Shown here piece by piece: positions 33,210 to 55,072 of a stretch of DNA of 64,000 nucleotides. Location of the stretch: NCBI RefSeq assembly GCF_902833045.1, contig NZ_CADFDU010000006.1:310001-374000 (forward strand). The letters run 5' to 3'. How positions within the stretch are numbered: position 1 is the first letter of the stretch; each line of letters starts with the position of its first letter. This DNA comes from Burkholderia sp. BCC0322 (GTDB taxonomy: Bacteria > Pseudomonadota > Gammaproteobacteria > Burkholderiales > Burkholderiaceae). The position numbers and the translations under genes were made by a program. The notes under the pieces are model-generated. The model had not been told where the DNA came from. It made no database searches and saw nothing but the letters and a program-made list of their open reading frames with translations.

Positions 33210-33240
33210 TTGCGCGAATGCTACCGACGAGATAGCATTT
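33210..33240 (+). promoter_or_regulatory. Early promoter-operator copy 1
   Basis: -35 TTGCGC (33210-33215), 17 bp, -10 TAGCAT (33233-33238). Embedded inverted repeat ATGCTACC, 5 bp, GATAGCAT at 33218-33238. It faces the gene at 33282 and sits in the divergent gap before the late operon. Confidence 0.75.
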
Positions 33241-33281
33241 AATCCGGCAGTATCGACAGACACCTACCGGAGGAAATCAGG

Positions 33282-33653
33282 ATGAAACCGTTTGATCTGG
33301 AAGCAGCGAAGCGCGGCGAGCCGATCGTCACGAGAGATGGGCGCAGCGTGGCTTTCGTGGCGCACGACCCGAATTTCTCGGAAACGCATCGGGTGATTAC
33401 TCGCGTCGAAGGAACCACTGCGCCGCGCTGCTATTTCGAATCCGGCGCGTACTTCAAAGAAGGCCCCGACGACCTCGACCTGTTCATGGCTCCGCGCAAG
33501 CGCACGGTGTACGTGAACATCTACGACCAAGCGAACCCGCTTGGCAAATCGCAGGGGAATTTCGCGGTGTGGCATGACAATGAAGCCGCCGCACGCAGGC
33601 ATTCGGACGAATCCGCGGTTGCAACCGCAGTCCCCGTCGAAATCGAGGTCTGA
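33282..33653 (+). CDS. Hypothetical early protein, 123 aa
   Basis: Begins MKPFDLEAAKRGEPIVTRDG after GGAGG. Similar short proteins with this opening occur in other Burkholderia phages (recollection); function unknown. It is the first gene of a plus-strand early unit controlled by promoter-operator copy 1. Confidence 0.75.
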   Translation: MKPFDLEAAKRGEPIVTRDGRSVAFVAHDPNFSETHRVITRVEGTTAPRCYFESGAYFKEGPDDLDLFMAPRKRTVYVNIYDQANPLGKSQGNFAVWHDNEAAARRHSDESAVATAVPVEIEV

Positions 33654-33655
33654 CC

Positions 33656-33826
33656 ATGTACCCGCGATCCCAACTGAAGAAGTGGTACGTGTACTGCGGA
33701 GACGTGCTCGTAGAAGTGGTCAAGGCAATCACCGAGCGCGGCGCGATCGAGGCGGCGAGCGCACTGTCGGGCCGCTCTGCGTCGACGCTGTTCGCGCAGA
33801 CGACCGTACGGGAGCGTCGAGCATGA
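33656..33826 (+). CDS. Small hypothetical protein, 56 aa
   Basis: Begins MYPRSQLKKWYVYCGDVLVE and ends T-T-V-R-E-R-R-A. Two bases after the preceding stop, and its own stop overlaps the next start (ATGA), so it is clearly inside the operon. Function unknown. Confidence 0.65.
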   Translation: MYPRSQLKKWYVYCGDVLVEVVKAITERGAIEAASALSGRSASTLFAQTTVRERRA

Positions 33827-34830
33827 CCACCACCGACAATAGCCGCGCTGATGCGCTGACGGGCGACAAGCGGCAAGCCCTCGGCGAAGCGTTGACCGAA
33901 TACTTTGCCGAACTGGACCGCAACATCGGAATCGATACGCCCGACCGAATTCTGTCCTTGATCGACTATCACAATGATCGCTTCATCGACGACCTGATCG
34001 ACCGCGCCATCGTGCCGGCTATCTTCGCATCCCCTGTCGAGCAGCACGAAGCAGCGCCGGCCGGGGCCGCGATGCTGGATTGGGCGGTCAGGCGATGGGA
34101 CGCGGAGGTGAAGAACCGGCCGCTCACCAACGTTCACCGGCGCTCGCTGGATGATACGTGGCGGCAGGTCGTGCGGCACTGCGGCGGCGACGACGTGTCG
34201 CTGCTCGGGCCGAGGCATGACGATCTGCTCGCGGCAAGCGCGCCCGCACCCTCCGCCCCGCTCGAAGGCACGGGCAATGGGGCGGATAACGAGTATCAGG
34301 TATCGATTGATGTGCGCGACCTGTTTGCATATCTGCGTGCTGCGTGGCGTGAAGGCCAGCATTACGACCGCGAGGATACGCCCGATCAAGCTGATAGCTG
34401 GAGTGCGGCAAGCGATTACGCCAACAAGACGATCGACCGCTGGACGTCGATGCGACCGATTGTTTCCCGCGCCCCTCGCACTGAGGTGGCGGGAGCGATG
34501 CGGGAGGGGTGGAAGCTTGTGCCGATCAAACCGACTGGCGTCATGAAAGATGCCGGGCATTGGGCGCTTCCGGTCGGCGTCGGCGGTCCTTGGACGGCCG
34601 CCGCCGTCTATCAGGCAATGCTCGATCAAGTCACCACGCCTCCCTCCGCAGATGCAGCGGCAGCGGCAGCGCCGGCAGACGGGCGAGCGGCTTTCGATTA
34701 CGACGACGTGGTTTCGATCTGTGACGCGCACGGAATCTGCTTGCCGGTCGATTGCGTCGAAATGGTAGTCGACATCGTGAAGCTGTCGGGGCTGCTTCCA
34801 GCCGGCGCGGCAGCATCGCAGCCCCGCTAA
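33823..34830 (+). CDS. Hypothetical early protein, 335 aa
   Basis: Begins MTTTDNSRADALTGDKRQAL. It has an N-terminal helical part, a Trp-rich middle (A-A-W-R-E-G-Q-H-Y, E-G-W-K-L-V-P-I-K-P-T) and an Ala-rich linker before D-D-V-V-S-I-C-D-A-H-G-I. The G-W-K-L-V-P block is often repeated in Burkholderia phage proteins of unknown role. No catalytic motif was seen. Confidence 0.72.
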   Translation: MTTTDNSRADALTGDKRQALGEALTEYFAELDRNIGIDTPDRILSLIDYHNDRFIDDLIDRAIVPAIFASPVEQHEAAPAGAAMLDWAVRRWDAEVKNRPLTNVHRRSLDDTWRQVVRHCGGDDVSLLGPRHDDLLAASAPAPSAPLEGTGNGADNEYQVSIDVRDLFAYLRAAWREGQHYDREDTPDQADSWSAASDYANKTIDRWTSMRPIVSRAPRTEVAGAMREGWKLVPIKPTGVMKDAGHWALPVGVGGPWTAAAVYQAMLDQVTTPPSADAAAAAAPADGRAAFDYDDVVSICDAHGICLPVDCVEMVVDIVKLSGLLPAGAAASQPR

Positions 34831-34872
34831 TCCGAATCACAATCGAATCACCAACCACAGGAGCACATCAGC

Positions 34873-35055
34873 ATGAGCGCACGTAAAGTCACGAACCTCC
34901 GCAAGCGCGCACAGCAGTACACGACTGCAACGGCGACGATCGCCGGATACAAGGTCACGGCGAACCTCGGAGCGGACGACAAGATCCGCTTCAAGGTCGA
35001 CGGCCGCCGCGTGAGCGGCTTCGACCTGCTCGCCCTGGTCGTATCCGCCACGTAA
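34873..35055 (+). CDS. Small basic hypothetical protein, 60 aa
   Basis: Begins MSARKVTNLRKRAQQYTTAT after CAGGAG and ends A-L-V-V-S-A-T. Basic with a beta-rich end (I-R-F-K-V-D-G-R-R-V). Last gene of the first plus-strand unit before a terminator. Function unknown. Confidence 0.6.
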   Translation: MSARKVTNLRKRAQQYTTATATIAGYKVTANLGADDKIRFKVDGRRVSGFDLLALVVSAT

Positions 35056-35081
35056 CAAACCACGTTTCGCGCCGCATGTAG

Positions 35082-35112
35082 AATAGCCCCGACATCCCAT
35101 CGGGGCTATTTC
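35082..35112 (+). terminator. Terminator after first early unit
   Basis: AATAGCCCCGA and TCGGGGCTATT form an 11-bp stem followed by TTC on the plus strand. The stem includes flanking A/T pairs. Confidence 0.75.
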
Positions 35113-35114
35113 AC

Positions 35115-35249
35115 ATGAAGCGAACATTTTCAGCGATCTGCGCCGCGCTCATGCTGGCCGCGGCTCTTGCCGTCGCTTATGGACTCTACACCTGGATTGA
35201 GTCGCCCACTCCGTCGCTCGGCGACGTTCTGTCGCACCGGGCAGGCTAG
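35115..35249 (+). CDS. Possible small membrane protein, 44 aa
   Basis: Begins MKRTFSAICAALMLAAALAV, a signal/anchor-like hydrophobic segment, and ends L-S-H-R-A-G. It starts five bases after a terminator and has no clear ribosome site, which lowers confidence. Its end overlaps the opposing gene by four bases. Confidence 0.4.
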   Translation: MKRTFSAICAALMLAAALAVAYGLYTWIESPTPSLGDVLSHRAG

Positions 35250-35488
35250 ACCCGCTGCGTCACCCGCGGCCCGGCCACAACGCGCCCGGCCGCATCTTTC
35301 CAGAACTCGATCGCCTCGCCGTTCGGGTATTCCCACACGCAGTGCAGGCCGCCGTTCACGGTCTGGCGCTCCCACATCGTCCCGCTGCGCACGGCGCGCC
35401 CCTCGCCGTCACCGGTCTTCCACGACTCGTAGTGCGGCGTCGCGGTGAATGTCGGCGGCTCGACATGCGCCCAGGGGTCGGCGCTCAT
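35246..35488 (-). CDS. Hypothetical protein, 80 aa
   Basis: Begins MSADPWAHVEPPTFTATPHY with Trp-rich beta segments (G-L-H-C-V-W-E-Y-P-N-G-E-A-I-E-F-W). Third gene of a three-gene minus-strand unit inside the early region, with four-base overlap to the gene upstream. Function unknown. Confidence 0.65.
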   Translation of the reverse strand: MSADPWAHVEPPTFTATPHYESWKTGDGEGRAVRSGTMWERQTVNGGLHCVWEYPNGEAIEFWKDAAGRVVAGPRVTQRV

Positions 35489-35796
35489 GACGCGTCCCCG
35501 ATACGCTGGCAGCCGTAGTTCTGGCCGCGCTTGACGAACTGGAACCGGCCCGCGAGCACGCCGCGAACCATGTGACGCGCGATGTCGTCGAAATCCGTCA
35601 TGAAGAACTGCACGCTCGCGCCGTCGCTGCGCTTGAAATGCAGCGTCGCAGACGATCGCCCCCGGCCGTAGCCCGAATACGTGAGCGCGTCCTCGAACGG
35701 CACGTTATCGCGCCATTCCAGGCCGCCCCAGGTGTCGGGGTAGCCCTTCTGGTTGCCTTTCGAGTCAAAAGGGATCTGATACGTGCCCTTCGCCAT
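35485..35796 (-). CDS. Hypothetical protein, 103 aa
   Basis: Begins M-A-K-G-T-Y-Q-I-P-F-D-S-K-G-N and has G-G-L-E-W-R-D-N-V-P-F-E-D and F-M-T-D-F-D-D-I. The ATG overlaps the upstream stop (TGATG). Pattern suggests a small folded beta protein. Function unknown. Confidence 0.65.
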   Translation of the reverse strand: MAKGTYQIPFDSKGNQKGYPDTWGGLEWRDNVPFEDALTYSGYGRGRSSATLHFKRSDGASVQFFMTDFDDIARHMVRGVLAGRFQFVKRGQNYGCQRIGDAS

Positions 35797-35927
35797 CACG
35801 CCCCCGTGCGGATCTGCCGGTAGAGCCGCTGTCTGCGTCGACGCTCGGCGCTCTGATCCTTCTCGTCCTGCGTGACCTTGCGCGCCGTCATGACCGGCGA
35901 CACGTAGCGGAAATTGAATTTCTTCAT
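35796..35927 (-). CDS. Small basic protein, 43 aa
   Basis: Begins MKKFNFRYVSPVMTARKVTQ and ends with an Arg-rich helix (A-E-R-R-R-R-Q-R-L-Y-R-Q-I-R). GGGAG precedes the start. First gene of the minus-strand trio; transcription probably begins in the divergent region at 35.93-36.0 kb. The C-terminal basic helix could bind RNA or DNA. Confidence 0.6.
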   Translation of the reverse strand: MKKFNFRYVSPVMTARKVTQDEKDQSAERRRRQRLYRQIRTGA

Positions 35928-35965
35928 TGCGGGATCTCCCTGAGAAGGAACAGTGGAAAAGGTGC

Positions 35966-35994
35966 TTGCGTAAATGCTATCCAAAAGGTAGTAT
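35966..35994 (+). promoter_or_regulatory. Early promoter-operator copy 2
   Basis: -35 TTGCGT (35966-35971), 17 bp, -10 TAGTAT (35989-35994). Embedded inverted repeat ATGCTATC, 5 bp, GGTAGTAT at 35974-35994. Lies between a minus-strand trio and plus-strand small genes. Confidence 0.8.
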
Positions 35995-36031
35995 TTAACC
36001 CATCGACAACGCAACACGAAGGGGAACGACG

Positions 36032-36175
36032 ATGCAAACCGCATACACGCTGATGGGATACACGGTCACGAACGCAGAGCAAGCCCGCACGGTTCTGCTG
36101 GTCGCCAAGCTGGCGGGCCGTGACGCCGTGGCAAAGCAAGCAATGGCGCTGATCGCGAAATATGAAGCGCAATAA
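36032..36175 (+). CDS. Small hypothetical protein, 47 aa
   Basis: Begins MQTAYTLMGYTVTNAEQART after AAGGGG and ends K-Y-E-A-Q. Helical and soluble. First gene after promoter-operator copy 2. Overlaps the next gene by 14 bases. Function unknown. Confidence 0.6.
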   Translation: MQTAYTLMGYTVTNAEQARTVLLVAKLAGRDAVAKQAMALIAKYEAQ

Positions 36176-36275
36176 ATTTTTCGACCGGTACCCCGGAGCC
36201 GCTGTCTCTCTTGCCTTCGTTGTCGGCGGCTTTATCGGCTTCTTGATCGGCGCGGCTTGGGCGCATGTCGCCTAA
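36162..36275 (+). CDS. Small membrane protein, 37 aa
   Basis: Begins MKRNKFFDRYPGAAVSLAFV; basic N terminus followed by one strong membrane segment (V-V-G-G-F-I-G-F-L-I-G-A-A-W). Out of frame with, and overlapping, the 47-aa gene. Function unknown. Confidence 0.55.
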   Translation: MKRNKFFDRYPGAAVSLAFVVGGFIGFLIGAAWAHVA

Positions 36276-36305
36276 CAACCGCTCTCGCTACAGGAGAAAG
36301 ACCGT
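36268..36305 (+). repeat. Intergenic repeat with ribosome site, copy 1
   Basis: GCCTAACAACCGCTCTCGCT then ACAGGAGAAAGACC. Nearly the same block recurs at 36514-36546 and, degraded, at 36764-36785. It spans a stop codon, spacer and ribosome site between consecutive small genes. Confidence 0.7.
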
Positions 36306-36519
36306 GAAAACTAGCTATCTGGTCGCTGTGACCAGCCAAAGAAAGGGTGTCCTTATGCAGTGCTTTGCGCGCACGAAAGAACGCGCCGAGTCCGCATGTG
36401 AAGCTCTTTTCGCGGACACGTTTCACGAGGACGGCCAAGCCACTGCGTTTGACGAAGACGCGGTAGTCGGAATCTGGATTGAGGGCGACCCCGACTACAT
36501 CCGCAGCGTCATCGCCTAA
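36304..36519 (+). CDS. Small hypothetical protein, 71 aa
   Basis: Begins M-K-T-S-Y-L-V-A-V-T-S-Q-R-K-G-V at a GTG after AGGAG, and ends I-R-S-V-I-A. Alternating beta/alpha pattern with a D-E-D-A-V-V-G-I-W strand. Flanked on both sides by the intergenic repeat. Function unknown. Confidence 0.6.
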   Translation: MKTSYLVAVTSQRKGVLMQCFARTKERAESACEALFADTFHEDGQATAFDEDAVVGIWIEGDPDYIRSVIA

Positions 36520-36546
36520 CAACCGCCCCCGCTACAGGAGAAAACC
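36514..36546 (+). repeat. Intergenic repeat with ribosome site, copy 2
   Basis: CGCCTAACAACCGCCCCCGC then TACAGGAGAAAACC, differing from copy 1 at a few bases. Confidence 0.7.
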
Positions 36547-36765
36547 ATGATCCACATTCATGAGCATCACGAATACCGCTCGCGAGCAACGATGGCTTGG
36601 TCGGCTCAGCGAGACGGCGCATCGCGCATCGAGTGGGAAGCGCGCGACCAGTTCGCAGGATATTGCTTGGACGCCGTATTCCTTATTCCGGCCGGATCCG
36701 TGCAGCGTATCGAACCGAAAGATCACGAGCCATTCGCGGCTTCGACATACGCACATCGACGTTGA
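36547..36765 (+). CDS. Small hypothetical protein, 72 aa
   Basis: Begins MIHIHEHHEYRSRATMAWSA after CAGGAG; His-rich N terminus and a C-F-L-free beta pattern in A-V-F-L-I-P-A-G-S-V. Ends A-S-T-Y-A-H-R-R. Part of the same small-gene string. Function unknown. Confidence 0.6.
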   Translation: MIHIHEHHEYRSRATMAWSAQRDGASRIEWEARDQFAGYCLDAVFLIPAGSVQRIEPKDHEPFAASTYAHRR

Positions 36766-36899
36766 ACAACCGCTCCCGCTACGGCGGGCAATCTGACCGC
36801 TAGGCCGAAATCTTTCACGTCGCCCGCAGAACATCGCGGGTTGATCGCAGCGTGTGGCGCTGCCTGACGATGGCCGTCAGTACTGCGAATAGGATGACG

Positions 36900-37112
36900 A
36901 TGAGCTACGAACCGAAGCAAGGGACGCCCGGATACGCGCGCGTCGTCGCACGGGGATGCGGCGGGAGCCGTGACTACTGGGGCGAATTCGACTGCGATCA
37001 CGCGCACCCGTGGACGTGCGATGACTGCCCGTGGCGCATCGAGAACGAGAAAGAGATCGAGCGGGCCGCACAGGCTGCGTTCGCAGCATCAAAGCGGCTC
37101 GGCTACGTTTGA
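36900..37112 (+). CDS. Small Cys-containing protein, 70 aa
   Basis: Begins MSYEPKQGTPGYARVVARGC and has D-C-D-H-A-H-P-W-T-C-D-D-C-P-W, a possible small metal knuckle, then a Glu/Ala helix. The ATG at 36900 follows AGGATGACG. Function unknown. Confidence 0.6.
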   Translation: MSYEPKQGTPGYARVVARGCGGSRDYWGEFDCDHAHPWTCDDCPWRIENEKEIERAAQAAFAASKRLGYV

Positions 37113-37130
37113 CAACCATACGGGGCACAC

Positions 37131-37349
37131 ATGGACACGAGAGCAAAAATCGCGCGCATGCGCGCCGAGGCGAAGCATTACCGCACACTCGCCGCATGCA
37201 ATCGTCGGATCGCGCGCGATGCGAAAGAGCGGGGCGACCAGCTCGGCGCACTAAAGGCGCAAATCCGCACGACTGAACTCGTCCGGGCCGCGCAGCAGCG
37301 CGACGCATGGGCGAAGGAACTGCGCGCCACGATGCAGGCCGCAGCCTAA
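37131..37349 (+). CDS. Small helical protein, 72 aa
   Basis: Begins MDTRAKIARMRAEAKHYRTL and is almost entirely Arg/Ala/Lys helix. Could form a coiled coil. Directly upstream of the AraC-like gene. Function unknown. Confidence 0.55.
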   Translation: MDTRAKIARMRAEAKHYRTLAACNRRIARDAKERGDQLGALKAQIRTTELVRAAQQRDAWAKELRATMQAAA

Positions 37350-37370
37350 AACCGCGCCCGCCTGGGCGCC

Positions 37371-37757
37371 ATGCAATCACACGCTATGGATGCCCCATTC
37401 TTCGAGCGGCCCGCGCACGAGCGCGTCAGGGCCGCTGCCGCCTGGATCTCTGCGAACTGCGAGCGTCCGATCACCATCGCGCAGGCCGCGGCCGTCGCCG
37501 CGATGAGCGAGCGCAATTTCCTGCGCCACTTCACGAGCACTATCGGCATGCCGCCGAGCGACTACATTGCGAAGTCGAGGATCATGCGCGCCCGTCGTCT
37601 GCTGATCGACACCGAGCTATCGATCAAGTCCGTCGCCCGATACAGCGGCTTCGGCAGCGGCGAGCATCTGGCGCGCACGTTCCGGCGCACGCTCGGGCAA
37701 TCGCCGAGCGAGTATCGCCGCCATGCGGCCACAGAAAAAGTTGCTGAAGCCTGTTGA
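37371..37757 (+). CDS. AraC-family DNA-binding protein (HTH domain only)
   Basis: A 128-residue protein that is nearly all DNA-binding domain. First HTH: R-P-I-T-I-A-Q-A-A-A-V-A-A-M-S-E-R-N-F-L-R-H-F; then G-M-P-P-S-D-Y-I; second HTH: L-S-I-K-S-V-A-R-Y-S-G-F-G-S-G-E-H-L-A-R-T-F with the classic G-x-S-P-x-x-Y-R-R-H end. There is no ligand domain, so it would act constitutively or by dose. AraC proteins are unusual in phage early regions; targets unknown. Confidence 0.9.
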   Translation: MQSHAMDAPFFERPAHERVRAAAAWISANCERPITIAQAAAVAAMSERNFLRHFTSTIGMPPSDYIAKSRIMRARRLLIDTELSIKSVARYSGFGSGEHLARTFRRTLGQSPSEYRRHAATEKVAEAC

Positions 37758-37782
37758 CGAGATACTACCTAACGGGTAGTAT
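37754..37782 (+). promoter_or_regulatory. Early promoter-operator copy 3 (perfect palindrome)
   Basis: -35 TTGACG (37754-37759), 17 bp, -10 TAGTAT (37777-37782). Inverted repeat ATACTACC, 5 bp, GGTAGTAT at 37762-37782 is perfect. It follows the AraC-like gene and points right, toward an ATG with GAGAGGG at 37830 whose frame conflicts with the opposite-strand gene. Confidence 0.85.
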
Positions 37783-37871
37783 TCATCTGTCCCCGCTACA
37801 AAGCGGGCAACGAACAGAGAGGGCGCACCATGCAGCGATACGCGAACAGAAGAGCCAGCGCGGACGGGCAA

Positions 37872-38171
37872 CTATCCGTTGTCGCGTCCGCAGAACGAAC
37901 AGCGCCAGTCGGCGCGAACTTCGCCGCCGCACGCGAAGCACCGAGACTTCGGCGCGTAGTGCGGCAGGTAGGACCGAGCCGGGAGCGCGCCAGGAGCGCA
38001 ACCGAGTTCGTGACTCGGGCGCTCGACGCGTTCCGGCTCGGTAGGAAAGGACACGACGCGGCCATCGAGCCCGAACAGTCTCCGCACGCTCATGCCGGTA
38101 ACAGCGAAATATTCGCCGACTGTTGGCTCGGAAGAGGGGAACAGCGAAGAATCGAAACGGCTGTTGACCAT
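37872..38171 (-). CDS. Zinc-ribbon protein, 99 aa
   Basis: The C terminus is a clear zinc ribbon, C-F-A-C-G-G-E-V-R-A-D-W-R-C-S-F-C-G, two C-x2-C knuckles ten residues apart. The rest (T-V-G-E-Y-F-A-V-T-G-M, V-V-S-F-P-T-E-P-E-R-V) is unrecognised. The start is uncertain: ATG at 38171 lacks a good ribosome site. A competing plus-strand frame (37830-38300) overlaps it entirely but has no motif. Confidence 0.6.
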   Translation of the reverse strand: MVNSRFDSSLFPSSEPTVGEYFAVTGMSVRRLFGLDGRVVSFPTEPERVERPSHELGCAPGALPARSYLPHYAPKSRCFACGGEVRADWRCSFCGRDNG

Positions 38172-38296
38172 GCGGTTGATTCCGGATTCGGCGTGAGGCC
38201 GACAGGGAAGAGGGGCGCGAAACTTGTCGTTTTCACTCCCCGCCCGCTCGGCATCGCCTACACTGAAAGCCCGTCTGCCCGCGTCCGGAGCGCGCC

Positions 38297-38500
38297 ATGA
38301 ACGAATTCGACATTCACGCGCTGAAGGCGCACATCCTCGAAGCGAGCATAGGCGTTCTTGAGGCGCAGCAGGCAAGCCGCAGCCCGTCTGCACGCGCCCG
38401 CCTGAGCGCGATCGATGAGTCTCTCAACAACGCCTTGCTCGTGATTGAGAAGTACGCGCCTAGCCAGTTAGTGCGGCTGCCGTCGCTCCAACAGCCGTAA
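38297..38500 (+). CDS. Small helical protein, 67 aa
   Basis: Begins MNEFDIHALKAHILEASIGV after GGAG; helical Ala/Leu/Ser throughout. A TACACT box lies about 30 bp upstream of the ATG. Its end overlaps the opposing gene by 33 bp. Function unknown. Confidence 0.55.
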   Translation: MNEFDIHALKAHILEASIGVLEAQQASRSPSARARLSAIDESLNNALLVIEKYAPSQLVRLPSLQQP

Positions 38501-38671
38501 CCGCAGCTCATACACGCAATCGGGCTCGACGAAGCCGACAACGCCGACCGCCATCCCGTCCGTGCGCCCGGTGCGCAGCAGCCAGCCGTCGCGATGCTCT
38601 TTCACGAGCCGACGCGGAGCGCGCAGCGTCCGTCCCTTCGCGTCGAGCGCGGGGTTCATGTATGCGTTCAT
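38468..38671 (-). CDS. Small hypothetical protein, 67 aa
   Basis: Begins MNAYMNPALDAKGRTLRAPR after AGGA; has R-D-G-W-L-L-R-T-G-R and an Arg/Leu-rich C-terminal helix. Downstream member of a minus-strand cassette. Function unknown. Confidence 0.6.
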   Translation of the reverse strand: MNAYMNPALDAKGRTLRAPRRLVKEHRDGWLLRTGRTDGMAVGVVGFVEPDCVYELRLRLLERRQPH

Positions 38672-38787
38672 GTGGATCCTGTAGGGAGGGAAGGGCACGA
38701 GCAGGAGGGCGCGCGCACGTTCGCCGGGCTCATCGAGTCATCCGGGGTAGCGCAGCCGTCGAAGGGCTCGCCCCTTCCCTATGATCG

Positions 38788-38919
38788 TCAGCCCGCCCGC
38801 AGCTCGCGGACGGCCTTCGCAGTGCGCAGCACGGATCGGAAGAGCGCGAAGGCGAGTTGAACGCCCGTCGCGCCTACGCCGAAGCCTGCGCCCATCTGTA
38901 CCGCTTGCCAGAAGCTCAT
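38788..38919 (-). CDS. Small hydrophobic protein, 43 aa
   Basis: Begins MSFWQAVQMGAGFGVGATGV with a Gly/Ala-rich hydrophobic segment and then a basic end (R-T-A-K-A-V-R-E-L). Overlaps the upstream gene by four bases. Possibly membrane associated. Confidence 0.55.
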   Translation of the reverse strand: MSFWQAVQMGAGFGVGATGVQLAFALFRSVLRTAKAVRELRAG

Positions 38920-47662: not shown

Positions 47663-47679
47663 CCACAGGAGAACGAGCC

Positions 47680-48330: not shown

Positions 48331-48384
48331 CGGGAGCAGATGAGTCGCGGCGGCTGATGCCGCCGCACATGGGAGGGCGGCGAA

Positions 48385-48801: not shown

Positions 48802-49549
48802 GGGCGTCATTCACGACGTGAAAACCGCCGCGGGCATGGCAGCATGCCGCAAGGACCGAGCAGAAGTGAAAGGTTATCGACTGCGCGTCGAGGACATCCG
48901 GAAAAAACTGAAAGCTCCGATTCTCGAAGCTGGCCGAGCTGTCGACGACAAGGCGGCGACCATCACGACGGAGATTGCGTCGCTCGAAACGGCATACGAT
49001 CAGCAGATCAAGGCCGAAGAGCAGCGCAAGGAAAAGGAAAGGCGCGATCGCGAGGAAGCGGAGCGCAAAGAGCGTGAAGCCGCATTGCGCGCGGAGCGCG
49101 AGAAGGCGGAAGCAGAAGCGGCAGAGTTGCGCCGAAAGAACGAAGAGCTGCAAGCGCAGCTCGCCGCAGCGACGGCCGCGCAAGCCGCGCAGGTAAAGCC
49201 GGTCTATATCCCGCCCCGAGAAAACGAAGCGCCGCAAGGGTGGGCGACGACAGAGACGAGCGTCGAGGAAGACGCTCCGCCGCATCCGCGAGTCGCCGCA
49301 CATGTTCCCGCGGCTCACGACGCTGATTTGCTCGATCTGGTGGATACGAAACCGTTTGATCGGGCCATGTCTGTCGTGCGTAATTCTGACATGCACGAGC
49401 ACGTACCCGCGCAACAGCCAGCACAAGGCGGCCTGCCGACCGCGCAGCAAATCGTTGACGCACTCAGCGAAAACGCGAAGCGGTACACGAACATCCGCCA
49501 CGTTTGCGCCGTCCTCGAAGCAATCCGAAAAATCGAGGCCCGAGCATGA
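48707..49549 (+). CDS. Coiled-coil protein, 280 aa
   Basis: Begins M-E-T-T-T-T-T-A-V-T-L-T-D-L-S-A-F-D. Residues 95-160 are a long Glu/Lys/Arg coiled coil (K-E-K-E-R-R-D-R-E-E-A-E-R), and the C terminus is L-P-T-A-Q-Q-I-V-D-A-L-S-E-N. Resembles phage DUF1351-like recombination proteins in shape; not proven. Confidence 0.7.
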   Translation: METTTTTAVTLTDLSAFDPVTMALEELRKRHEGVIHDVKTAAGMAACRKDRAEVKGYRLRVEDIRKKLKAPILEAGRAVDDKAATITTEIASLETAYDQQIKAEEQRKEKERRDREEAERKEREAALRAEREKAEAEAAELRRKNEELQAQLAAATAAQAAQVKPVYIPPRENEAPQGWATTETSVEEDAPPHPRVAAHVPAAHDADLLDLVDTKPFDRAMSVVRNSDMHEHVPAQQPAQGGLPTAQQIVDALSENAKRYTNIRHVCAVLEAIRKIEARA

Positions 49550-49869
49550 GCGGCGAGAAACCGAATATCTGCGAGGCGTTGCGCCTGATCCGCGTCTACC
49601 ACGACCTGAAGCAAAAGGAAGTGAGCGCACGAACGGGCGTCGTCGAACCGACGATTTCGATGCTCGAAAGCGGCAAGCGCCAGCCGAGCGTCGAAATGCT
49701 TCAGAAGTACGCTGACGCGTTCAGCGTGCCGATGTCGTCGATCCTGTTTCTCGCCGAGCAGCTCGCAAGCCCGCCGATTCAGCGGCCCGTTAGCAAAACG
49801 ATTCACAAGACGGTTATCCAAATTCTCAACTGGATCGCCGACAAACACGAACAAGGAACGCAGCCATGA
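49546..49869 (+). CDS. XRE-family transcriptional regulator, 107 aa
   Basis: The HTH reads L-R-L-I-R-V-Y-H-D-L-K-Q-K-E-V-S-A-R-T-G-V-V-E-P-T-I-S-M-L-E-S-G-K-R. Second XRE protein in the phage. Its start overlaps the upstream stop. It is in the recombination block rather than the immunity region; its targets may be the same operator family. Confidence 0.85.
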   Translation: MSGEKPNICEALRLIRVYHDLKQKEVSARTGVVEPTISMLESGKRQPSVEMLQKYADAFSVPMSSILFLAEQLASPPIQRPVSKTIHKTVIQILNWIADKHEQGTQP

Positions 49870-50762
49870 ATGACATCAACGAACTCGTCGCCGGAAATCG
49901 AGAAGTGATTCGCAGCGTCGCCACGGGCCGCCCGGACGCTTACATGATCCCGCTCGGCATCGTCCGAATCCGAGAAGGGTTCAACGATGCACGAAAGGCT
50001 GATCCGGACTACCCGGCGCACGTGCGTGAAATCGCCGACTCGATGAAGGCTAACGGCTGGCTGCGTCACAAGCCGCTCGTCGGCGTCATCACGCCGGAAG
50101 GGCTTGCCGTTCCCTCGGACGGCCACTCGCGATACGAGGCCGCCTTGCTCGCAAACAGCGAGGGCGCGGGGATCGAGCAGATCCCGTTTATGCCCGAGCA
50201 GAAGGGCACGAACGAGGACGATCGGATTTTCGGCCTGATCCTGAACAATAACGGGAAGCGCCTGACGCCGATGGGCGAGGCGATCGTCATCAAGCAACTG
50301 ATCGGCCGCGGCATCGCAGAGAAGGAAATCGCCCGACGCACCGGCTACTCGATCACGAAGGTGCAAAACGCCCTCACGCTCATTGCGGCGCCGACGCAGA
50401 TTCGCGACATGGTGTCGGCTGGCGAGGTTTCCGCGACGACAGCAATCAAGACGATCAAGGAACACGGTACGCATGCAGTCGGACAGCTCCAGGAGGCGAA
50501 GGAAACGGCCGCCGCGGCGGGAAAGACGCGCATCACCGGAAAGCACTTGGGCGAGCCGAAGCCGAAGAAACCGCACGCCGATACGGCTCGGCTCGATTTC
50601 CTGATCGAAACCGGGGCTTACATCAAGCAGATTTCGGACGATCCGCAGTATGCGGTTTTCGATAAGAACAGCTATCCGATGTTCCAGGCAGGGAACCCGC
50701 GCAACGCGATCGACGCGGCGATCGAATACAACAACCAATCGAACAAGGAAGCAACCGAATGA
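49866..50762 (+). CDS. ParB-like protein, 298 aa
   Basis: ParB/Srx nuclease-like fold: I-R-E-I-A-D-S-M-K-A-N-G-W, L-V-G-V-I-T-P-E-G-L, G-H-S-R-Y-E-A-A (ParB box). An HTH follows (A-I-V-I-K-Q-L-I, I-A-R-R-T-G-Y-S-I-T-K-V-Q-N-A-L). Phage ParB-like genes often sit in recombination blocks and may be CTP-binding DNA clamps or nucleases. Confidence 0.88.
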   Translation: MNDINELVAGNREVIRSVATGRPDAYMIPLGIVRIREGFNDARKADPDYPAHVREIADSMKANGWLRHKPLVGVITPEGLAVPSDGHSRYEAALLANSEGAGIEQIPFMPEQKGTNEDDRIFGLILNNNGKRLTPMGEAIVIKQLIGRGIAEKEIARRTGYSITKVQNALTLIAAPTQIRDMVSAGEVSATTAIKTIKEHGTHAVGQLQEAKETAAAAGKTRITGKHLGEPKPKKPHADTARLDFLIETGAYIKQISDDPQYAVFDKNSYPMFQAGNPRNAIDAAIEYNNQSNKEATE

Positions 50763-50971
50763 ATACCGCAGAACTCCTGATCCGCTCACAACAGTGTCTC
50801 GCGAAACTTGGCGAAACGATGTGCAACGGCTGTACGCCTGACACCGCGGCGCTCGCACGCGAACACATGAAACTCGCTACAACGCTTGTGCATGCGGTCG
50901 ACCGTGAGCGCCGCGAAACGGAAGAGCGTGAACGCAACGCGGAGCGGGCGCGCCAGCGACTTTCGGCGTAA
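50759..50971 (+). CDS. Small helical protein, 70 aa
   Basis: Begins MNTAELLIRSQQCLAKLGET with C-N-G-C and a coiled coil rich in Glu and Arg at the end. Four-base overlap with ParB-like gene. Function unknown. Confidence 0.6.
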   Translation: MNTAELLIRSQQCLAKLGETMCNGCTPDTAALAREHMKLATTLVHAVDRERRETEERERNAERARQRLSA

Positions 50972-50986
50972 AAAATTCGCCGCCAA

Positions 50987-51007
50987 ATACTACCGTGAAG
51001 GGCGTAT
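50987..51007. promoter_or_regulatory. Operator copy upstream of exonuclease gene
   Basis: ATACTACC perfect left arm, 5 bp, GGGCGTAT right arm. 54 bp before the exonuclease start. -35/-10 here are weaker than in copies 1-5. Confidence 0.65.
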
Positions 51008-51060
51008 TTGGCATATGATAATCCCCACACGGTAGCACATCGAACTCATCGGAGAAATCA

Positions 51061-51885
51061 ATGAACACGCGGCCCGAAATTCACCTCGACATCGAAACCA
51101 TCCCGGCGCAGAACCCCGAACTCATCGAATCGATTCGACAAGGCCTGAGCGCTGATTTCAAGGCGCCGTCCGATATGACAAAGGAACGTGCGTGCGCAGA
51201 ACTCGGCATGACGGACCCGAACGAAATCAAGTTCACGTCGAAGGCGCGCGCGCTCGAAATGTGGGTCGAGCGTTTCCGCGACGAGAAACTCGAAGAGACG
51301 GTCGAGGCAGAGTATCGCAAAACGTCGTTCAACGGAGCGCTCGGCCAGATCGCCGTTTTCGGCCTCGCGCTCGACGATCGCGATCCGCAAATGTTCTATT
51401 CGCCGAACTGGCAAGATCCGGATGCCGAGCGAGGCGTCATCGCCGAGGCGTTCGAGTTTATCGCCGACACGTTCCACCCGGAATCGATGCGGCACCCGAT
51501 CTTCATCGGCCACTACATCAGCGGCTTCGATCTGCGTTTCATTTTTCATCGCGCTGCCATTCTCGGCATCAAGCCGCCGTCGTTCATTCCGTTCCATGCG
51601 CGCCCTTGGGATGACACGATCTTCGATACGATGACGCAATGGGCGGGCCACAACGGCACGATCAAGCTCGACGCGCTCTGCCGTGCCCTGGGCGTTCCCG
51701 GAAAGACCGAGGGCATGGACGGCTCGCAGGTTTGGGACTACGTGCGTTCCGGTCGCATCGCAGAGGTCGCGGCCTACTGCGCCGACGACATCGACGCGTC
51801 GCGAGCCTGCTACAAGCGCATGACGTTCCAGCCGCTTCCGGCTCCGACGTGCTCGCAGATTCCGGAAGGCGAATTCGCTTTCTAA
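51061..51885 (+). CDS. DnaQ-like 3'-5' exonuclease, 274 aa
   Basis: DEDD exonuclease: I-H-L-D-I-E-T-I near residue 7 (Asp, Glu), H-Y-I-S-G-F-D-L-R-F near 147 and Y-C-A-D-D-I-D-A near 238. Length and pattern fit the predicted PolB-like exonucleases of phages. Likely in recombination or nucleotide supply. Confidence 0.88.
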   Translation: MNTRPEIHLDIETIPAQNPELIESIRQGLSADFKAPSDMTKERACAELGMTDPNEIKFTSKARALEMWVERFRDEKLEETVEAEYRKTSFNGALGQIAVFGLALDDRDPQMFYSPNWQDPDAERGVIAEAFEFIADTFHPESMRHPIFIGHYISGFDLRFIFHRAAILGIKPPSFIPFHARPWDDTIFDTMTQWAGHNGTIKLDALCRALGVPGKTEGMDGSQVWDYVRSGRIAEVAAYCADDIDASRACYKRMTFQPLPAPTCSQIPEGEFAF

Positions 51886-51887
51886 CC

Positions 51888-52076
51888 GTGGAATCGCAGA
51901 AGCACATCGCGGACTGCCGAAGCCGATTTATGTCGGCAGTTCGCGAGGGCAGAAGAGGGCACTACGGCAGCGCGAGCCAGATAGTCGAGTCTGTTCGCAG
52001 AGCTAGAGGCGACGCCGCCGCCGAGATTGCCAAGCGCGAGTTGTGGGCGTACATCCGAAGCGAGAAACCTGCATGA
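51888..52076 (+). CDS. Small helical protein, 62 aa
   Basis: GTG start three bases after the exonuclease stop. Begins M-E-S-Q-K-H-I-A-D-C-R-S-R and ends I-R-S-E-K-P-A. Coupled to the VRR-NUC gene by ATGA overlap. Function unknown. Confidence 0.55.
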   Translation: MESQKHIADCRSRFMSAVREGRRGHYGSASQIVESVRRARGDAAAEIAKRELWAYIRSEKPA

Positions 52077-52480
52077 CTAAAAGAAGAGCATTGAGCGTGC
52101 CGCTTGAGCATGACGAGCAAGTGGCGTTCATCAAATGGGTTCGGCTCCAATACCCCGATTTGCTCGTATGGGCGAATGCAAACGGCGGCAAGCGGGCCAA
52201 ACGAACGGCAATTCTCCTGAAGCTTGAGGGAGTGTTGGCCGGTGTCCTCGACATGACCGTAGCCCGTGCCCGCGGGATCTACCACGGCATGTACATCGAA
52301 ATGAAGCGCCGCAAGGGCGGTTCCGTCAGCGACGAGCAGAAAGACATGATCGACGCCCTCCGAAAGGAGGGCTATCACTGCGTCGTGACGAAGGGATGGG
52401 AAGAGGCCGCGCAACGTCTGCGCGAATACATGGAACTCGGCGAGCCGATCTATGGAAAAGCAGACATTCAGACTCTGTGA
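52073..52480 (+). CDS. VRR-NUC domain nuclease
   Basis: A 135-residue restriction-like nuclease: E-H-D-E-Q-V-A-F-I-K-W-V, N-A-N-G-G-K-R, L-L-K-L-E-G-V-L-A-G-V-L-D and I-E-M-K-R-R-K-G-G. The usual G-x-P-D metal Asp is present in G-V-L-D. Common in phage recombination blocks, where it cuts DNA junctions. Confidence 0.9.
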   Translation: MTKRRALSVPLEHDEQVAFIKWVRLQYPDLLVWANANGGKRAKRTAILLKLEGVLAGVLDMTVARARGIYHGMYIEMKRRKGGSVSDEQKDMIDALRKEGYHCVVTKGWEEAAQRLREYMELGEPIYGKADIQTL

Positions 52481-52865
52481 CAGCAACAGACAACAGGCCG
52501 CGCAAGCGTTCGTCGACGCGCCGGACGGCTGGCATTTAACCCTCGCCCCTCCAACGCGATCCCTCGATCAAAACGCACTCCTGCACAAGCTCTTCGACCT
52601 CGTGGCGAAGCAAAAGAAATTCATGGGGCGTGTTCTGACGCCTACTCAGTGGAAAGTGATTTTCGTCTCGGGGCATGCGACAGCAACGGGGCACGGAGCG
52701 GACATGGTTCCAGGGCTCGAAGGCGAGTTTGTGAACATCCGCGAATCCACGGCTCAGATGGGCGTGAAACGCATGGCAAGCCTGCTTGAATACGTGACGG
52801 CGTGGTGTACGCAAAACGATGTGCGGATCCCTGCGGGACGAGGCTATGACGGCCTGAACATTTGA
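52452..52865 (+). CDS. NinB-like recombination protein
   Basis: A 137-residue protein with the ninB pattern: L-D-Q-N-A-L-L-H-K-L-F, L-T-P-T-Q-W-K-V-I-F-V-S-G-H and S-T-A-Q-M-G-V-K-R-M-A. In lambda NinB (Orf) helps start recombination on SSB-coated DNA. Overlaps the nuclease gene by 29 bp. Confidence 0.88.
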   Translation: MEKQTFRLCDSNRQQAAQAFVDAPDGWHLTLAPPTRSLDQNALLHKLFDLVAKQKKFMGRVLTPTQWKVIFVSGHATATGHGADMVPGLEGEFVNIRESTAQMGVKRMASLLEYVTAWCTQNDVRIPAGRGYDGLNI

Positions 52866-52871
52866 CCGTAA

Positions 52872-52892
52872 ATACTACCAAAAAGATATATT
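52872..52892. promoter_or_regulatory. Operator copy upstream of Ref-like gene
   Basis: ATACTACC perfect left arm, 5 bp, GATATATT. TTGACC lies at 52863-52868 as a possible -35, with TATATT 19 bp on. Confidence 0.65.
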
Positions 52893-52917
52893 TCGAGTAA
52901 TATTTATACCGCGTGAG

Positions 52918-53253
52918 GTGAGATTGGCGAAGAAGCAGGCACCGGCAGCAGAGCGCAGATATATGGGGATGGTCGCGTCGAGAGGGTGCGCGGCATGCAG
53001 GCGACTCGGGTTCAACGTGGACGACATGCAGGCAGCCGTTCACCACCGAGTTAGGGGGCGGGGAGGATGGGGGCGATCGAGCAACTATCAGACGTGCGGC
53101 CTATGCGGACATCACCATCAGCATAGCGGCGAGGGGGTTCACGACATGGGCGACGACGAGTATTTCGCCCATTTCGGGTTCCGAGAGATTGACTTGATAC
53201 GGGACACGCAGGCCGCGCTAATCGAATTCGTGCCTGCGTCCGAAAGGGTATAA
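52918..53253 (+). CDS. Ref-like RecA-dependent nuclease family protein
   Basis: A 111-residue protein: G-C-A-A-C-R-R-L-G, A-V-H-H-R-V-R-G-R, C-G-L-C-G-H-H-H-Q-H, then F-A-H-F-G-F-R-E. This is the HNH-type layout of phage P1 Ref and relatives. Start is the GTG at 52918 or a TTG two codons on (GAGGTGA upstream). Confidence 0.8.
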   Translation: MRLAKKQAPAAERRYMGMVASRGCAACRRLGFNVDDMQAAVHHRVRGRGGWGRSSNYQTCGLCGHHHQHSGEGVHDMGDDEYFAHFGFREIDLIRDTQAALIEFVPASERV

Positions 53254-53255
53254 AG

Positions 53256-53591
53256 ATGAGTGGCGCCGTAACCGAACACGAACTGCTCGAAACGATGGTC
53301 GAGGGATACAGTTACCGAAGAAGCGACGTTACTTCGCTACTGTACGATAAGCCGAAAGCAGCGGTACTCGACGCGCTCGAAGCGCTCGTGAAAAAGGGAT
53401 CTGTTTGGCGCACGTATGTAGGCGGACGGTTCGAATACATCCGTCTCACGCTCGTCCAGCTCGCGGACATGGCGCAGCGTAAAGCGGATCAGAGCGACAC
53501 GCCGGAATGGATGGGTAAGGCCCTGACGGGTTACGGGGACTGGCTCGATCGACACCACGCGCTCGCTATGAGCACGCGCCGAACCGCGTGA
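53256..53591 (+). CDS. Hypothetical protein, 111 aa
   Basis: Begins MSGAVTEHELLETMVEGYSY; V-L-D-A-L-E-A-L-V-K-K-G-S-V-W and the following strand-turn resemble a winged helix. Last gene but one before the PrtN-like gene. Function unknown. Confidence 0.6.
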   Translation: MSGAVTEHELLETMVEGYSYRRSDVTSLLYDKPKAAVLDALEALVKKGSVWRTYVGGRFEYIRLTLVQLADMAQRKADQSDTPEWMGKALTGYGDWLDRHHALAMSTRRTA

Positions 53592-53598
53592 GGCGAGA

Positions 53599-53865
53599 AT
53601 GAACACTGCATTTTTGCTGATGGCGCAATTCGGCGCACGAGCAGTCATCCCGATTGAAGACGTGCGCCGCGAATATTTCCCGCACCTCGACCTGAACAAG
53701 TTCCAGCGAAAAATTAGCTCGGGAGAGATTGCGCTCCCGATCGTGCGAATCGAGGGGAGCCAGAAGGCCGCGCGCGGCGTACATCCGCAAGACCTTGCCG
53801 AGTACATCGACAAGCAGCGCGCCGCGGCGGTCAAGGAACGGAATCAACTCTGCGGTCTGACGTAG
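53599..53865 (+). CDS. Pyocin activator PrtN-family protein
   Basis: An 88-residue protein: M-N-T-A-F-L-L-M-A-Q-F, V-I-P-I-E-D-V-R-R-E-Y-F-P-H-L, I-A-L-P-I-V-R-I-E-G-S-Q-K. PrtN activates pyocin genes by binding P boxes; phage relatives next to integrases may act as excisionase or activator. Its 3' end overlaps the opposing integrase by 22 bp. Confidence 0.88.
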   Translation: MNTAFLLMAQFGARAVIPIEDVRREYFPHLDLNKFQRKISSGEIALPIVRIEGSQKAARGVHPQDLAEYIDKQRAAAVKERNQLCGLT

Positions 53866-54953
53866 CCGAGCGGCAATTGCGGGAGTGGCGCGATAATGTC
53901 GAGCCATTCCCAGGTCGCGTACTTGTCGCCGAATGCGTGAATGTGGGCGTACCGCTTCAGGTGCGTCCAGGTCTTGTGCCCGGACATCATTGAAACCTCG
54001 GGGATACTTTTCCCCATTTCGAACAGCCGACTTACCCCCTCGTGCCGCAGGTCGTGGAATCGCAGATCCTTGATCCCAAGCTCGACGCACGCCTCGTGAA
54101 ATTCGATCGTGACGGTGTTCGCATCAAGATCGAAAACTTCCCCTTCAGAGATCGCCGGGGCGGCCCGTAGAATCCGGAGCGCTTCGAACGTCATATCGAC
54201 CCAAACGTGATTTCCGATTTTCTTTTTCGGGTCTTTCATGTCGAATACGAGCAGGCGGCATCCGGCCTGATCGACATCCTGAACGGTCATGCGCACGATT
54301 TCGCTGCGGCGCCGCGCCGAGAAGATCGCATAGAGGACGATGAGGTGATACGGGGCCGCTTTCTGATTGCGGAGCCATTTCTCGTACATGCGCCGGACAA
54401 TGTGCGTCACCTCGTCGAGGGTCGGGCGCCGATCCCGGCGAACCGACGTGCCGATGACACCAAGCTCTGAAAGAACGTCGATCGCCTCGGCGATGGTCGC
54501 CTTGGCGAGCGGGAACCCCCATGCCGGGCGCGCGATCTTGAAAATAGTTTTGAGGTGGCTGAAGTATCCGGCGACGGTGACGGGTGCTAGGCCAAGTTCC
54601 TCACCGAACTTCACGAGAGCCGTGCTCGTCACCTCGGAGCACCGCAGCTTCGCGATGTCCTTTTTCTCGATCAATTCGAGCGCCTGTTTCTTGCTCTTGT
54701 CGAGTTCGAGGCGCGGTTGATCGAGAAAGCGCCGAATCGCGGCCGCGAGCGGCGGGTCGTCGGCCTTCGCTGCTTCTATGGATCCCGGAGCGGCAAGCTC
54801 GGAGTCACGCTTTTTCCCCCAGGCGACAGCCGCTTGGCGTCGATCGAAAGTTTGCGTTTCCTGGTGAACTATCTTCCCGTCCCGGCGCACCCTGACCTGA
54901 ACCTTGTAAGTCGTTGTACCATTTGCGTTTGTTCGTGGCGTAACCGTAGCCAT
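53844..54953 (-). CDS. int: Tyrosine-type integrase
   Basis: A 369-residue site-specific recombinase. Catalytic residues: Arg in S-A-R-R-R-S-E-I, H-x-x-R in F-H-D-L-R-H-E-G, His in M-S-G-H-K-T-W, Tyr in L-K-R-Y-A-H-I. The N-terminal part has an arm-type domain and a core-binding helical domain (A-A-A-I-R-R-F-L). It lies beside attR, reading away from it, and would join the 17-bp core between ygfZ and mltG. Confidence 0.95.
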   Translation of the reverse strand: MATVTPRTNANGTTTYKVQVRVRRDGKIVHQETQTFDRRQAAVAWGKKRDSELAAPGSIEAAKADDPPLAAAIRRFLDQPRLELDKSKKQALELIEKKDIAKLRCSEVTSTALVKFGEELGLAPVTVAGYFSHLKTIFKIARPAWGFPLAKATIAEAIDVLSELGVIGTSVRRDRRPTLDEVTHIVRRMYEKWLRNQKAAPYHLIVLYAIFSARRRSEIVRMTVQDVDQAGCRLLVFDMKDPKKKIGNHVWVDMTFEALRILRAAPAISEGEVFDLDANTVTIEFHEACVELGIKDLRFHDLRHEGVSRLFEMGKSIPEVSMMSGHKTWTHLKRYAHIHAFGDKYATWEWLDIIAPLPQLPLGYVRPQS

Positions 54954-55051
54954 TTGCTTCCCCGTTGTGTGCCGCGGGCAGACGGAGCGGCGAACTACGC
55001 TCTACCCGTGGCACACATTCTGGCACACTGGCACACTCGGGACAATGCTCC

Positions 55052-55072
55052 ATGCTACCGAAATGGGCTAAA
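55052..55072. promoter_or_regulatory. Operator-like copy upstream of integrase
   Basis: ATGCTACC left arm, 5 bp, GGGCTAAA. It lies 99 bp upstream of the integrase start and would put integration under the same control. Another partial copy (ACGCTACC) is at 55127-55134. Confidence 0.55.

What the first reader, a model, noticed from the sequence alone, without database searches (positions are those of the whole stretch)
33210..55072. One promoter-operator repeat family spread over the whole early half of the prophage
The inverted repeat ATACTACC, five bases, GGTAGTAT (often with G for the third base and GATAG for GGTAG) appears at 33218, 35974, 37762, 40759, 43089, 43598, 43673, 46363, 50987 and 52872, with weaker copies at 42839 and 55052. 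In six copies (33210, 35966, 37754, 40751, 46355, and 43117 on the minus strand) the operator sits exactly in a 17-bp spacer between a -35 and a -10, the right arm being the -10 itself. None was seen inside the late genes. A single protein could therefore switch all early units and perhaps integrase together, a distributed immunity design more like mycobacteriophage stoperators than lambda OL/OR.
Basis: partly seen in the sequence, partly recalled or inferred. Interest (0 to 1): 0.85.

Follow-up and report, generated by a model that had tools for sequence, protein, structure and literature searches.

The report
Phage-wide repressor operator set
A dormant virus in a bacterial chromosome carries about a dozen copies of one mirror-image DNA switch at its early gene starts, and related viruses keep such switches in the same places while their letters drift, which suggests that one repressor holds the whole early half silent.

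Summary
All 12 listed sites exist. A matrix built only from three related phages ranks 10 of the 12 as the ten best sites in the 64-kb window; above 12 bits it finds 14 sites in the early part (33196-55194), 0 in the late part, 0 in the host flanks. The six claimed 17-bp promoters are present. The prophage spans 8298-55194.

Ten related phage records carry 8-24 dispersed 8-N5-8 palindromes each. At gene ends where the window has a site, 48 of 73 relative genes also have one within 150 bp, against a mean of 7.2 and maximum of 20 after jitter. A homologous repressor was found in 8 of the 10 records. Seven relatives with distant or no such repressor have at most 3 matrix hits each.

Best reading: operators of the phage's own repressor, closing early promoters one by one; closer to phage P1 C1 than to lambda. 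Unlike mycobacteriophage stoperators the sites are symmetric, and 7 of 16 overlap a promoter.

Not shown: binding. Operator drift could not be tied to repressor drift apart from general divergence (partial Mantel P 0.20). New variant of a known kind.

The parts
8298..55194 (.). Prophage, bounded by direct repeat GTATTATATGGGTCTTA (8298-8314 and 55178-55194), probable attL/attR
   Evidence: 17-bp exact repeat, longest found between 4001-12200 and 53801-57500
33218..33238 (+). Operator in a promoter (-35 TTGCGC 33210, 17 bp, -10 TAGCAT 33233); 5' of ORF 33282-33653 and 44 bp from the small terminase start on the other strand
35974..35994 (+). Operator in a promoter (-35 TTGCGT 35966, 17 bp, -10 TAGTAT); 5' of a 47-aa ORF 36032-36175 read from the sequence
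37762..37782 (+). Perfect palindrome in a promoter (-35 TTGACG 37754, 17 bp, -10 TAGTAT); 5' of ORF 37830-38300
40759..40779 (+). Operator in a promoter (-35 TTGACT 40751, 17 bp, -10 TAGTAT); 5' of ORF 40812-40994
42784..42804 (.).
42839..42859 (.). Operator copy between the repressor gene and the tRNA pair
43089..43109 (-). Operator in a minus-strand promoter (-35 TTGCTT 43117-43112, 17 bp, -10 TATTAT 43094-43089), 3' of the repressor gene, pointing at the tRNA pair; a site lies 3' of the repressor also in G005, G006, G407 and G408 (4 of 8 relatives)
43161..43553 (-). 130-aa HTH repressor, no peptidase part found; best solved relative by profile is Rep of the Salmonella phage Rep-Ant complex (5d50)
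43598..43618 (.). Weak operator upstream of the repressor gene (12.0 bits)
43673..43693 (.). Operator upstream of the Cro-like gene
43714..43935 (+). 73-aa Cro-like protein, divergent from the repressor; homologue beside the repressor in six relatives
46363..46383 (+). Operator in a promoter (-35 TTGCTT 46355, 17 bp, -10 TAGTAT); 5' of ORF 46423-46848; a site lies 3' of the preceding gene in 8 of 9 relatives that have it, in all four variants
50987..51007 (.). Operator upstream of the polymerase-type exonuclease gene 51061-51885
51018..51038 (.).
52872..52892 (.). Operator directly after NinB and upstream of ORF 52918 (Ref-like nuclease) and the excisionase/PrtN-like gene 53599-53865
55052..55072 (.). 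Weak operator (9.5 bits) upstream of the integrase gene 53844-54953
55127..55147 (.).

Best explanation
The repeats are the operators of the prophage's own immunity regulator. A dimer of the 130-aa helix-turn-helix repressor (43161-43553), and probably the divergent Cro-like protein during lytic growth, binds the 21-bp 8-N5-8 palindrome. At six places the palindrome fills the spacer and -10 of a sigma-70-type promoter, so a bound dimer excludes RNA polymerase. Copies beside the repressor, Cro-like, exonuclease, recombination and integrase genes put those units under the same switch. In the lysogen each early unit is thus closed by its own operator, not only by one early promoter pair, and late genes stay off because their activation needs early products. 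Shown: the sequences, their number, promoter overlap, confinement to the early part, shared positions in relatives, and occurrence with this repressor family. Inferred: binding, dimerisation, repression, the late-gene step, and derepression by an antagonist protein, because no self-cleavage part was found.
For: A matrix from relatives finds 14 sites in the early part and none in the late part or host flanks. Shared positions: at ten gene ends where the window has a site, 48 of 73 homologous gene ends in ten relatives have one within 150 bp; circular shifts give mean 3.8, maximum 15, and jitter by up to 3 kb mean 7.2, maximum 20, in 2000 trials each; variant I 24 of 25, other variants 24 of 48 against jitter mean 4.6, maximum 14 (some ends are neighbours and count the same site twice). 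Promoter overlap: 7 of 16 window sites have TTG 16-18 bp from an arm-embedded -10 against 7.2% of random positions, P 6e-5; G004 7 of 9, G005 8 of 21, G006 8 of 24. Each of the five plus-strand promoter copies in the window is followed by a leader and a start codon. Repressor identity to the window 57-59% in G005/G006, 48-58% in G405-G409, 40% in G413. Seven relatives with distant or no such repressor (G411, G412, G415-G418, G420) have 0-3 hits per genome, reversed control 0-2. Profile search puts the repressor with phage repressors Rep (5d50, E 1.3e-6) and CI (7nkv, 4.5e-6).
Against: No binding or expression data. 9 of 16 window sites have no arm-embedded promoter, so their mode of action is open; in G409 the promoter overlap is not significant (4 of 19, P 0.08). 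Operator change is not separable from general divergence: Mantel r 0.68 with the repressor but 0.76 with a baseplate protein; partial r 0.20, P 0.20 for the repressor, and 0.48 for the baseplate protein given the repressor. Variants I to III are graded: matrices of G405, G406 and G408 find about as many sites in variant I phages as in their own. No strong site lies within 300 bp of the repressor gene in G413, only an 8.6-bit one. No repressor was found in G004 and G410, whose contigs may end before it. Site lists of variants II and III grew from seeds I chose; blind search missed III and brought II up only at the null level.
Confidence: 0.8

Rival explanations
1. The palindrome is bound mainly by a host chromosomal XRE regulator; the phage has put its early promoters under a host regulator, so host physiology sets lysogeny.
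For: ATACTACC-N5-GGTAGTAT with 0 or 1 mismatch stands beside a small chromosomal XRE gene in Paraburkholderia bryophila, Oxalicibacterium solurbis and an Andreprevotia (3 of the 14 stretches, the surroundings of the other 11 were not examined). Of 30 loci of that XRE family fetched, 5 hold a palindrome with at least 13 of 14 arm matches to ATACTAC.
Against: The site sets go with the phage's own repressor family and drift between phages; sites flank the phage repressor gene in most relatives that have it. Whether the window's host has the XRE gene could not be tested, as no genome is held.
Confidence: 0.07
2. The sites act like stoperators: the bound protein mainly stops elongating RNA polymerase at gene junctions, with promoter overlap in only some copies.
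For: 9 of 16 window sites have no arm-embedded promoter, and several of these sit at gene junctions (50987, 51018, 52872).
Against: Sites are symmetric, whereas stoperators are asymmetric and oriented with transcription (PMC6550527, PMC9283540, passages). Five of the six copies scoring best in the window with the relatives' matrix are promoter-type.
Confidence: 0.1
3. The palindrome is a promoter element read by an activator or phage sigma-like factor that turns early genes on.
For: It overlaps -10 elements and is often followed by a shared word (25 of 68 promoter-type rows carry CATCG, CATCA or TATCG within 23 bases, against 9% at random).
Against: A palindrome over spacer and -10 is the placement of repressor sites (general knowledge); -35 and -10 hexamers are kept in the promoter-type copies of all four variants while other arm letters change.
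Confidence: 0.05

Closest known systems
Bacteriophage P1 C1 repressor and its dispersed operators
   Same: One repressor, many operators over the genome (22 sites), operators next to promoters, repressor inactivated by a protein, Coi (PMC8546580, passages).
   Different: P1 operators are asymmetric 17-mers (same passages); here 21-bp palindromes with an arm serving as -10. The repressor was not compared with C1, and no coi or lxc counterpart was sought.
Cluster A mycobacteriophage immunity (L5, Bxb1): operators and stoperators
   Same: 20-30 dispersed sites; site motif and repressor distances correlate between phages (PMC6550527, passages).
   Different: There asymmetric 13-mers bound by a monomer, mostly outside promoters, oriented with transcription (PMC6550527, PMC9283540, passages). 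Here palindromes, confined to the early part in the window, 7 of 16 over a promoter.
Lambda-type CI/Cro OL/OR switch
   Same: Divergent repressor and Cro-like genes with sites between them. The nearest annotated phage proteins are CI of Stx-type and mEp506 phages, 35% over 92 aa.
   Different: Not clusters at two places but mostly single sites at ten or more units; no cleavage part found in the repressor.
Rep of the Salmonella phage Rep-Ant pair (5d50)
   Same: Best solved relative by profile (E 1.3e-6) and first in the fold search (E 3.1e-3, none at 0.001 or better); in complex with an antirepressor.
   Different: Only the HTH part (about 50 residues) matches; the single sequence gives no significant match (best E 0.08); no antirepressor gene was identified here.
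phiC31 repressor and its conserved inverted repeats
   Same: Dispersed palindromic repressor sites, many at early promoters (recalled; search found no paper).
   Different: Not compared by any search.

Membership tests
Cluster A stoperator immunity | Asymmetric sites | tested here: not met
   Sites are palindromes
Cluster A stoperator immunity | Sites mostly not promoter-associated, one orientation with transcription | tested here: inconclusive
   9 of 16 window sites lack an arm-embedded promoter; orientation has no meaning for a palindrome
Cluster A stoperator immunity | Monomeric two-domain repressor of about 183 aa | tested here: inconclusive
   130 aa, helices of one HTH domain plus two C-terminal helices; oligomer state not testable
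P1 C1-type dispersed operators | Many operators dispersed over the phage genome | tested here: met
   14 sites over 12 bits in 22 kb of the window; 8-24 per related record; none in the window's late part
P1 C1-type dispersed operators | Asymmetric 17-bp operator | tested here: not met
   Operator is a 21-bp palindrome
P1 C1-type dispersed operators | C1 homologue | not tested
   No direct comparison with C1 was made
Lambda-type CI/Cro switch | Divergent repressor and Cro-like genes with operators between | tested here: met
   Genes 43161-43553 (-) and 43714-43935 (+), sites 43598 and 43673
Lambda-type CI/Cro switch | Operators confined to OL and OR clusters | tested here: not met
   Sites from 33218 to 55127
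Lambda-type CI/Cro switch | Repressor with self-cleaving domain | tested here: not met
   130 aa, no such Pfam match
Distributed repressor-operator immunity (general kind) | Repressor binds the dispersed sites in a lysogen | not testable with these tools
   Needs a binding or occupancy experiment

The most novel reading that the evidence does not exclude
A little-studied family of temperate phages, found in Burkholderia-type and metagenomic sequence, uses genome-wide palindromic operators held at fixed gene junctions, and the whole set of about 10-20 operators has changed letters together with the repressor, once completely (to MGGATACY) and more gently in two other branches, giving different immunity groups; one variant has converged on, or shares, the operator of a chromosomal XRE regulator family, so that host regulator and prophage can bind each other's sites.
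Probability: 0.15. Interest if true: 0.78.

Novelty: new variant of a known kind. Interest (0 to 1): 0.58.

Why it matters
If right, it extends distributed immunity, best known from P1 and from mycobacteriophages, to a separate group of contractile-tailed phages, with symmetric operators built into promoters. Operator variants at shared positions are a ready data set for asking how a repressor can change specificity when it must carry a dozen operators along. It also gives a sequence-based prediction of which prophages of this group should exclude one another.

Tried and rejected
Blind palindrome search. Variant I: first in G005 in both runs, first or tied first in G004, first or second in G006, but in the window absent from the five shown or third and under the null maximum. 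Variant IV: first in G413 (above null), first in G410 but below its null maximum. Variant II reached only the null level; variant III was not found. Nothing convincing for the seven relatives with other regulators.

Coevolution test: 8 phages, 28 pairs. Repressor and operator distances correlate, but baseplate and operator distances correlate more, and the partial correlation with the repressor is not significant. I therefore claim co-occurrence, not proven coevolution. The tail sheath dropped out because G408 had no hit; the large terminase was collected but not used.

Considered and rejected: chance; a host-wide repeat (0 sites in 17.1 kb of host flanks); chance agreement of positions.

Not counted: G410 as a repressor-operator pair, since no repressor was found and its contig seems to end before the place where G413 has one (reckoned from shared sites); likewise G004. 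G220:C14 looks like the same prophage as G409 and is not counted twice. G405 was reached through its repressor, not through late genes, and its contig is only 20.6 kb.

Paper searches for phiC31 inverted repeats, Burkholderia operators, three wordings of dispersed operators and an XRE operator word showed, in their listings, nothing on this phage group; subscription papers are not held, so absence from print is not shown.
Full report
Setting. The window holds an integrated prophage from 8298 to 55194, bounded by the 17-bp exact repeat GTATTATATGGGTCTTA, next to a thymidylate kinase gene. Late genes (terminase, portal, tail sheath, tail fibre) lie on the minus strand from about 12 to 33.2 kb. 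Early genes lie mostly on the plus strand from 33.2 kb: O-like replication protein, DnaC-like loader, Sak4, ParB-like, polymerase-type exonuclease, NinB, Ref-like nuclease, an excisionase/PrtN-like gene, with the integrase on the minus strand. GC content of 61.6% and short matches to Burkholderia phages only (7 records, none over about 1% of the query) suggest a Burkholderia-like host. The late half has no near match among 50,697 phage records, and the tail sheath finds 3 records at under 60% identity. No genome is held for the window.

The observation. All 12 listed places carry the described palindrome. Seven match the exact consensus within 3 mismatches against 0.03 expected. The self-trained matrix is partly circular, so I made two cleaner tests. 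Leaving each site out in turn, 11 of 12 still rank within the top 12 of the window and 55052 ranks 15. With a matrix from three relatives only, 10 of the 12 are the ten best sites of the 64 kb. Above 12 bits there are 14 sites in the early part, 0 in 24.9 kb of late part and 0 in 17.1 kb of host flanks, against a mean of 0.325 and maximum of 2 in 40 order-3 shuffles of the whole window. Sites 43598 and 55052 are weak; 51018, 42784, 40536 and 55127 are likely additional copies. In blind searches of the window alone the motif did not stand out.

Promoters. Counted by rule, 7 of 16 window sites have such a partner at 16-18 bp on either strand (the six, and a doubtful one at 55052), against 7.2% of random positions (P 6e-5). 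The count is 7 of 9 in G004, 8 of 21 in G005, 8 of 24 in G006, and 3 of 8 to 8 of 15 in G405-G408, G413 and G410; G409 with 4 of 19 is not significant, P 0.08. After the -10 the plus-strand copies in the window run through a short leader to a start codon. A CATCG, CATCA or TATCG word follows within 23 bases in 25 of 68 rows against 9% at random (rows include both strands of some sites). The mode of action of the sites without an embedded promoter is open.

Relatives. A motif scan of IMG/VR and a scan with the baseplate protein 15056-16207 (122 relatives, best 80 kept) gave a panel. I searched 27 records for the repressor and 12 had a match at E up to 0.001. The consensus with up to 3 mismatches occurs 9, 13 and 14 times in G004, G005 and G006, control 0, and in 7 of 23 further records at 1-2 copies each. 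Iterated matrices gave 16 sites in the window (9000-55200), 9, 21 and 24 in G004-G006 (variant I, ATACTACC), 19 in G409 (II, nnRCTATC), 8, 23, 15 and 18 in G405-G408 (III, ATAATMTC-like), and 14 and 10 in G413 and G410 (IV, MGGATACY); reversed-sequence controls were 0-4. All were sought with the five-base gap; the blind searches, which allowed other gaps, gave registers that fit it in variants I and IV. In the cross-scan variants I to III are graded: variant I matrices find 3-6 sites in most variant II and III phages (G004's matrix 0-4) and 9-23 in variant I phages, but matrices of G405, G406 and G408 find about as many in variant I as in their own. Variant IV stands apart. Seven relatives with distant or no such repressor (G411, G412, G415-G418, G420) show 0-3 hits with any variant I-III matrix; G418 has the 2-3.

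Positions. For ten gene ends at which the window has a site, I asked whether homologous genes in the ten relatives have one within 150 bp. They do in 48 of 73 cases. Circular shifts of the sites give mean 3.8, maximum 15; jitter by up to 3 kb gives mean 7.2, maximum 20, in 2000 trials each. Variant I phages have 24 of 25; the other variants 24 of 48 against a jitter mean of 4.6, maximum 14. Neighbouring ends share sites, so the cases are not all independent. Best kept: 3' of the gene like 45803-46333 (8 of 9), 3' of the gene like 50759-50971 (5 of 5), 5' of the Cro-like gene (5 of 6), 5' of the integrase (4 of 4; in G413 and G410 the integrase is only 22% identical), 5' of the gene like 52918 (6 of 9). 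Poorly kept: 3' of NinB (2 of 10). This is the strongest result: the places stay while the letters drift.

The regulator. The 130-aa protein has homologues in eight relatives at 40-59% identity (G005, G006, G405-G409, G413) and weaker ones at 27-31% in G411, G416 and G420, which lack the sites. Residues at the predicted recognition helix (H49-57) differ by variant: SQ/SE-AYMSH-NTxYKPIG in I, R(Q/E)AYMSHINTxYK(N/A)IG in III, SDAYLSHINTGYREIG in II, NPVYLSNLNTGSKTIG in IV. That this helix is the recognition helix is my reading of the model. The Cro-like protein varies as well (6 relatives, 25-51%), so the two cannot be told apart as the binder. The model has mean pLDDT 83; the fold search has no match at E 0.001 or better, first being Rep of the Salmonella Rep-Ant complex at 3.1e-3, also first in a profile search (E 1.3e-6 over about 50 residues). 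The single sequence has no significant PDB match (best E 0.08). No peptidase domain was found, so RecA-type cleavage is unlikely and a protein antagonist is the likely trigger (inference).

The test that did not come out. Over 8 phages, operator divergence correlates with repressor divergence (r 0.68, P 0.0006) but also with baseplate divergence (r 0.76, P 0.0016). The partial correlation with the repressor is 0.20, P 0.20, and with the baseplate protein given the repressor 0.48. Operator sets and repressor go together, but cause is not separated from common descent.

Known systems. P1 has 22 C1 sites, asymmetric 17-mers (PMC8546580, passages). Cluster A mycobacteriophages have 20-30 asymmetric sites, most acting as stoperators, and site motif distances correlate with repressor distances (PMC6550527, passages; PMC9283540, passages). 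The present system works like these in being distributed, but is not a member of either on the features tested. I file it as a new variant of distributed repressor-operator immunity.

A side result. The same palindrome stands beside small chromosomal XRE genes in three named genomes. Within the family of one of them, 27 of 200 genomes have a homologue of that XRE protein, and 5 of 30 fetched loci hold an almost exact ATACTAC palindrome. Whether host and phage regulators share operators is untested.

Noticed in passing
42548-42715; L029:3826-3900; L172:12664-12739: tRNA genes sit 3' of the repressor gene on its strand: Tyr and Gly in the window, Ala in G006, Gln in G409; none in the other 15 of 17 loci scanned. 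In the window an operator-bearing minus-strand promoter (43117) points at them.
   Followed up: partly
L031:5325-5627, L032:5326-5682, L033:4779-5132: Small chromosomal XRE genes with an exact or near-exact copy of the phage operator beside them; paralogues in G001 have ATACTACG-N5-CGTAGTAT type sites nearby.
   Followed up: partly
37371-37757: AraC-type HTH ORF (PF12833, E 4e-24) in the early region, its stop codon inside the -35 of the 37754 promoter.
   Followed up: no
53599-53865: PrtN-like (PF11112) protein, called excisionase by PHROGs, next to the integrase.
   Followed up: no
49866-50762: ParB-like protein in an integrated prophage, with homologues in G004-G006.
   Followed up: no
10811-11944: Acyltransferase gene (PF01757) on the plus strand beside the tail fibre gene, possibly a lysogenic-conversion gene (the role is a guess).
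   Followed up: no
34034-34287: 254 bp 93% identical to Burkholderia phage BcepNY3 at gp60, perhaps a recent exchange with another phage.
   Followed up: no
10748-10768: Degenerate palindrome (6.9 bits) where G004, G005 and G006 have an operator 41-43 bp upstream of the homologue of 10349-10639.
   Followed up: partly
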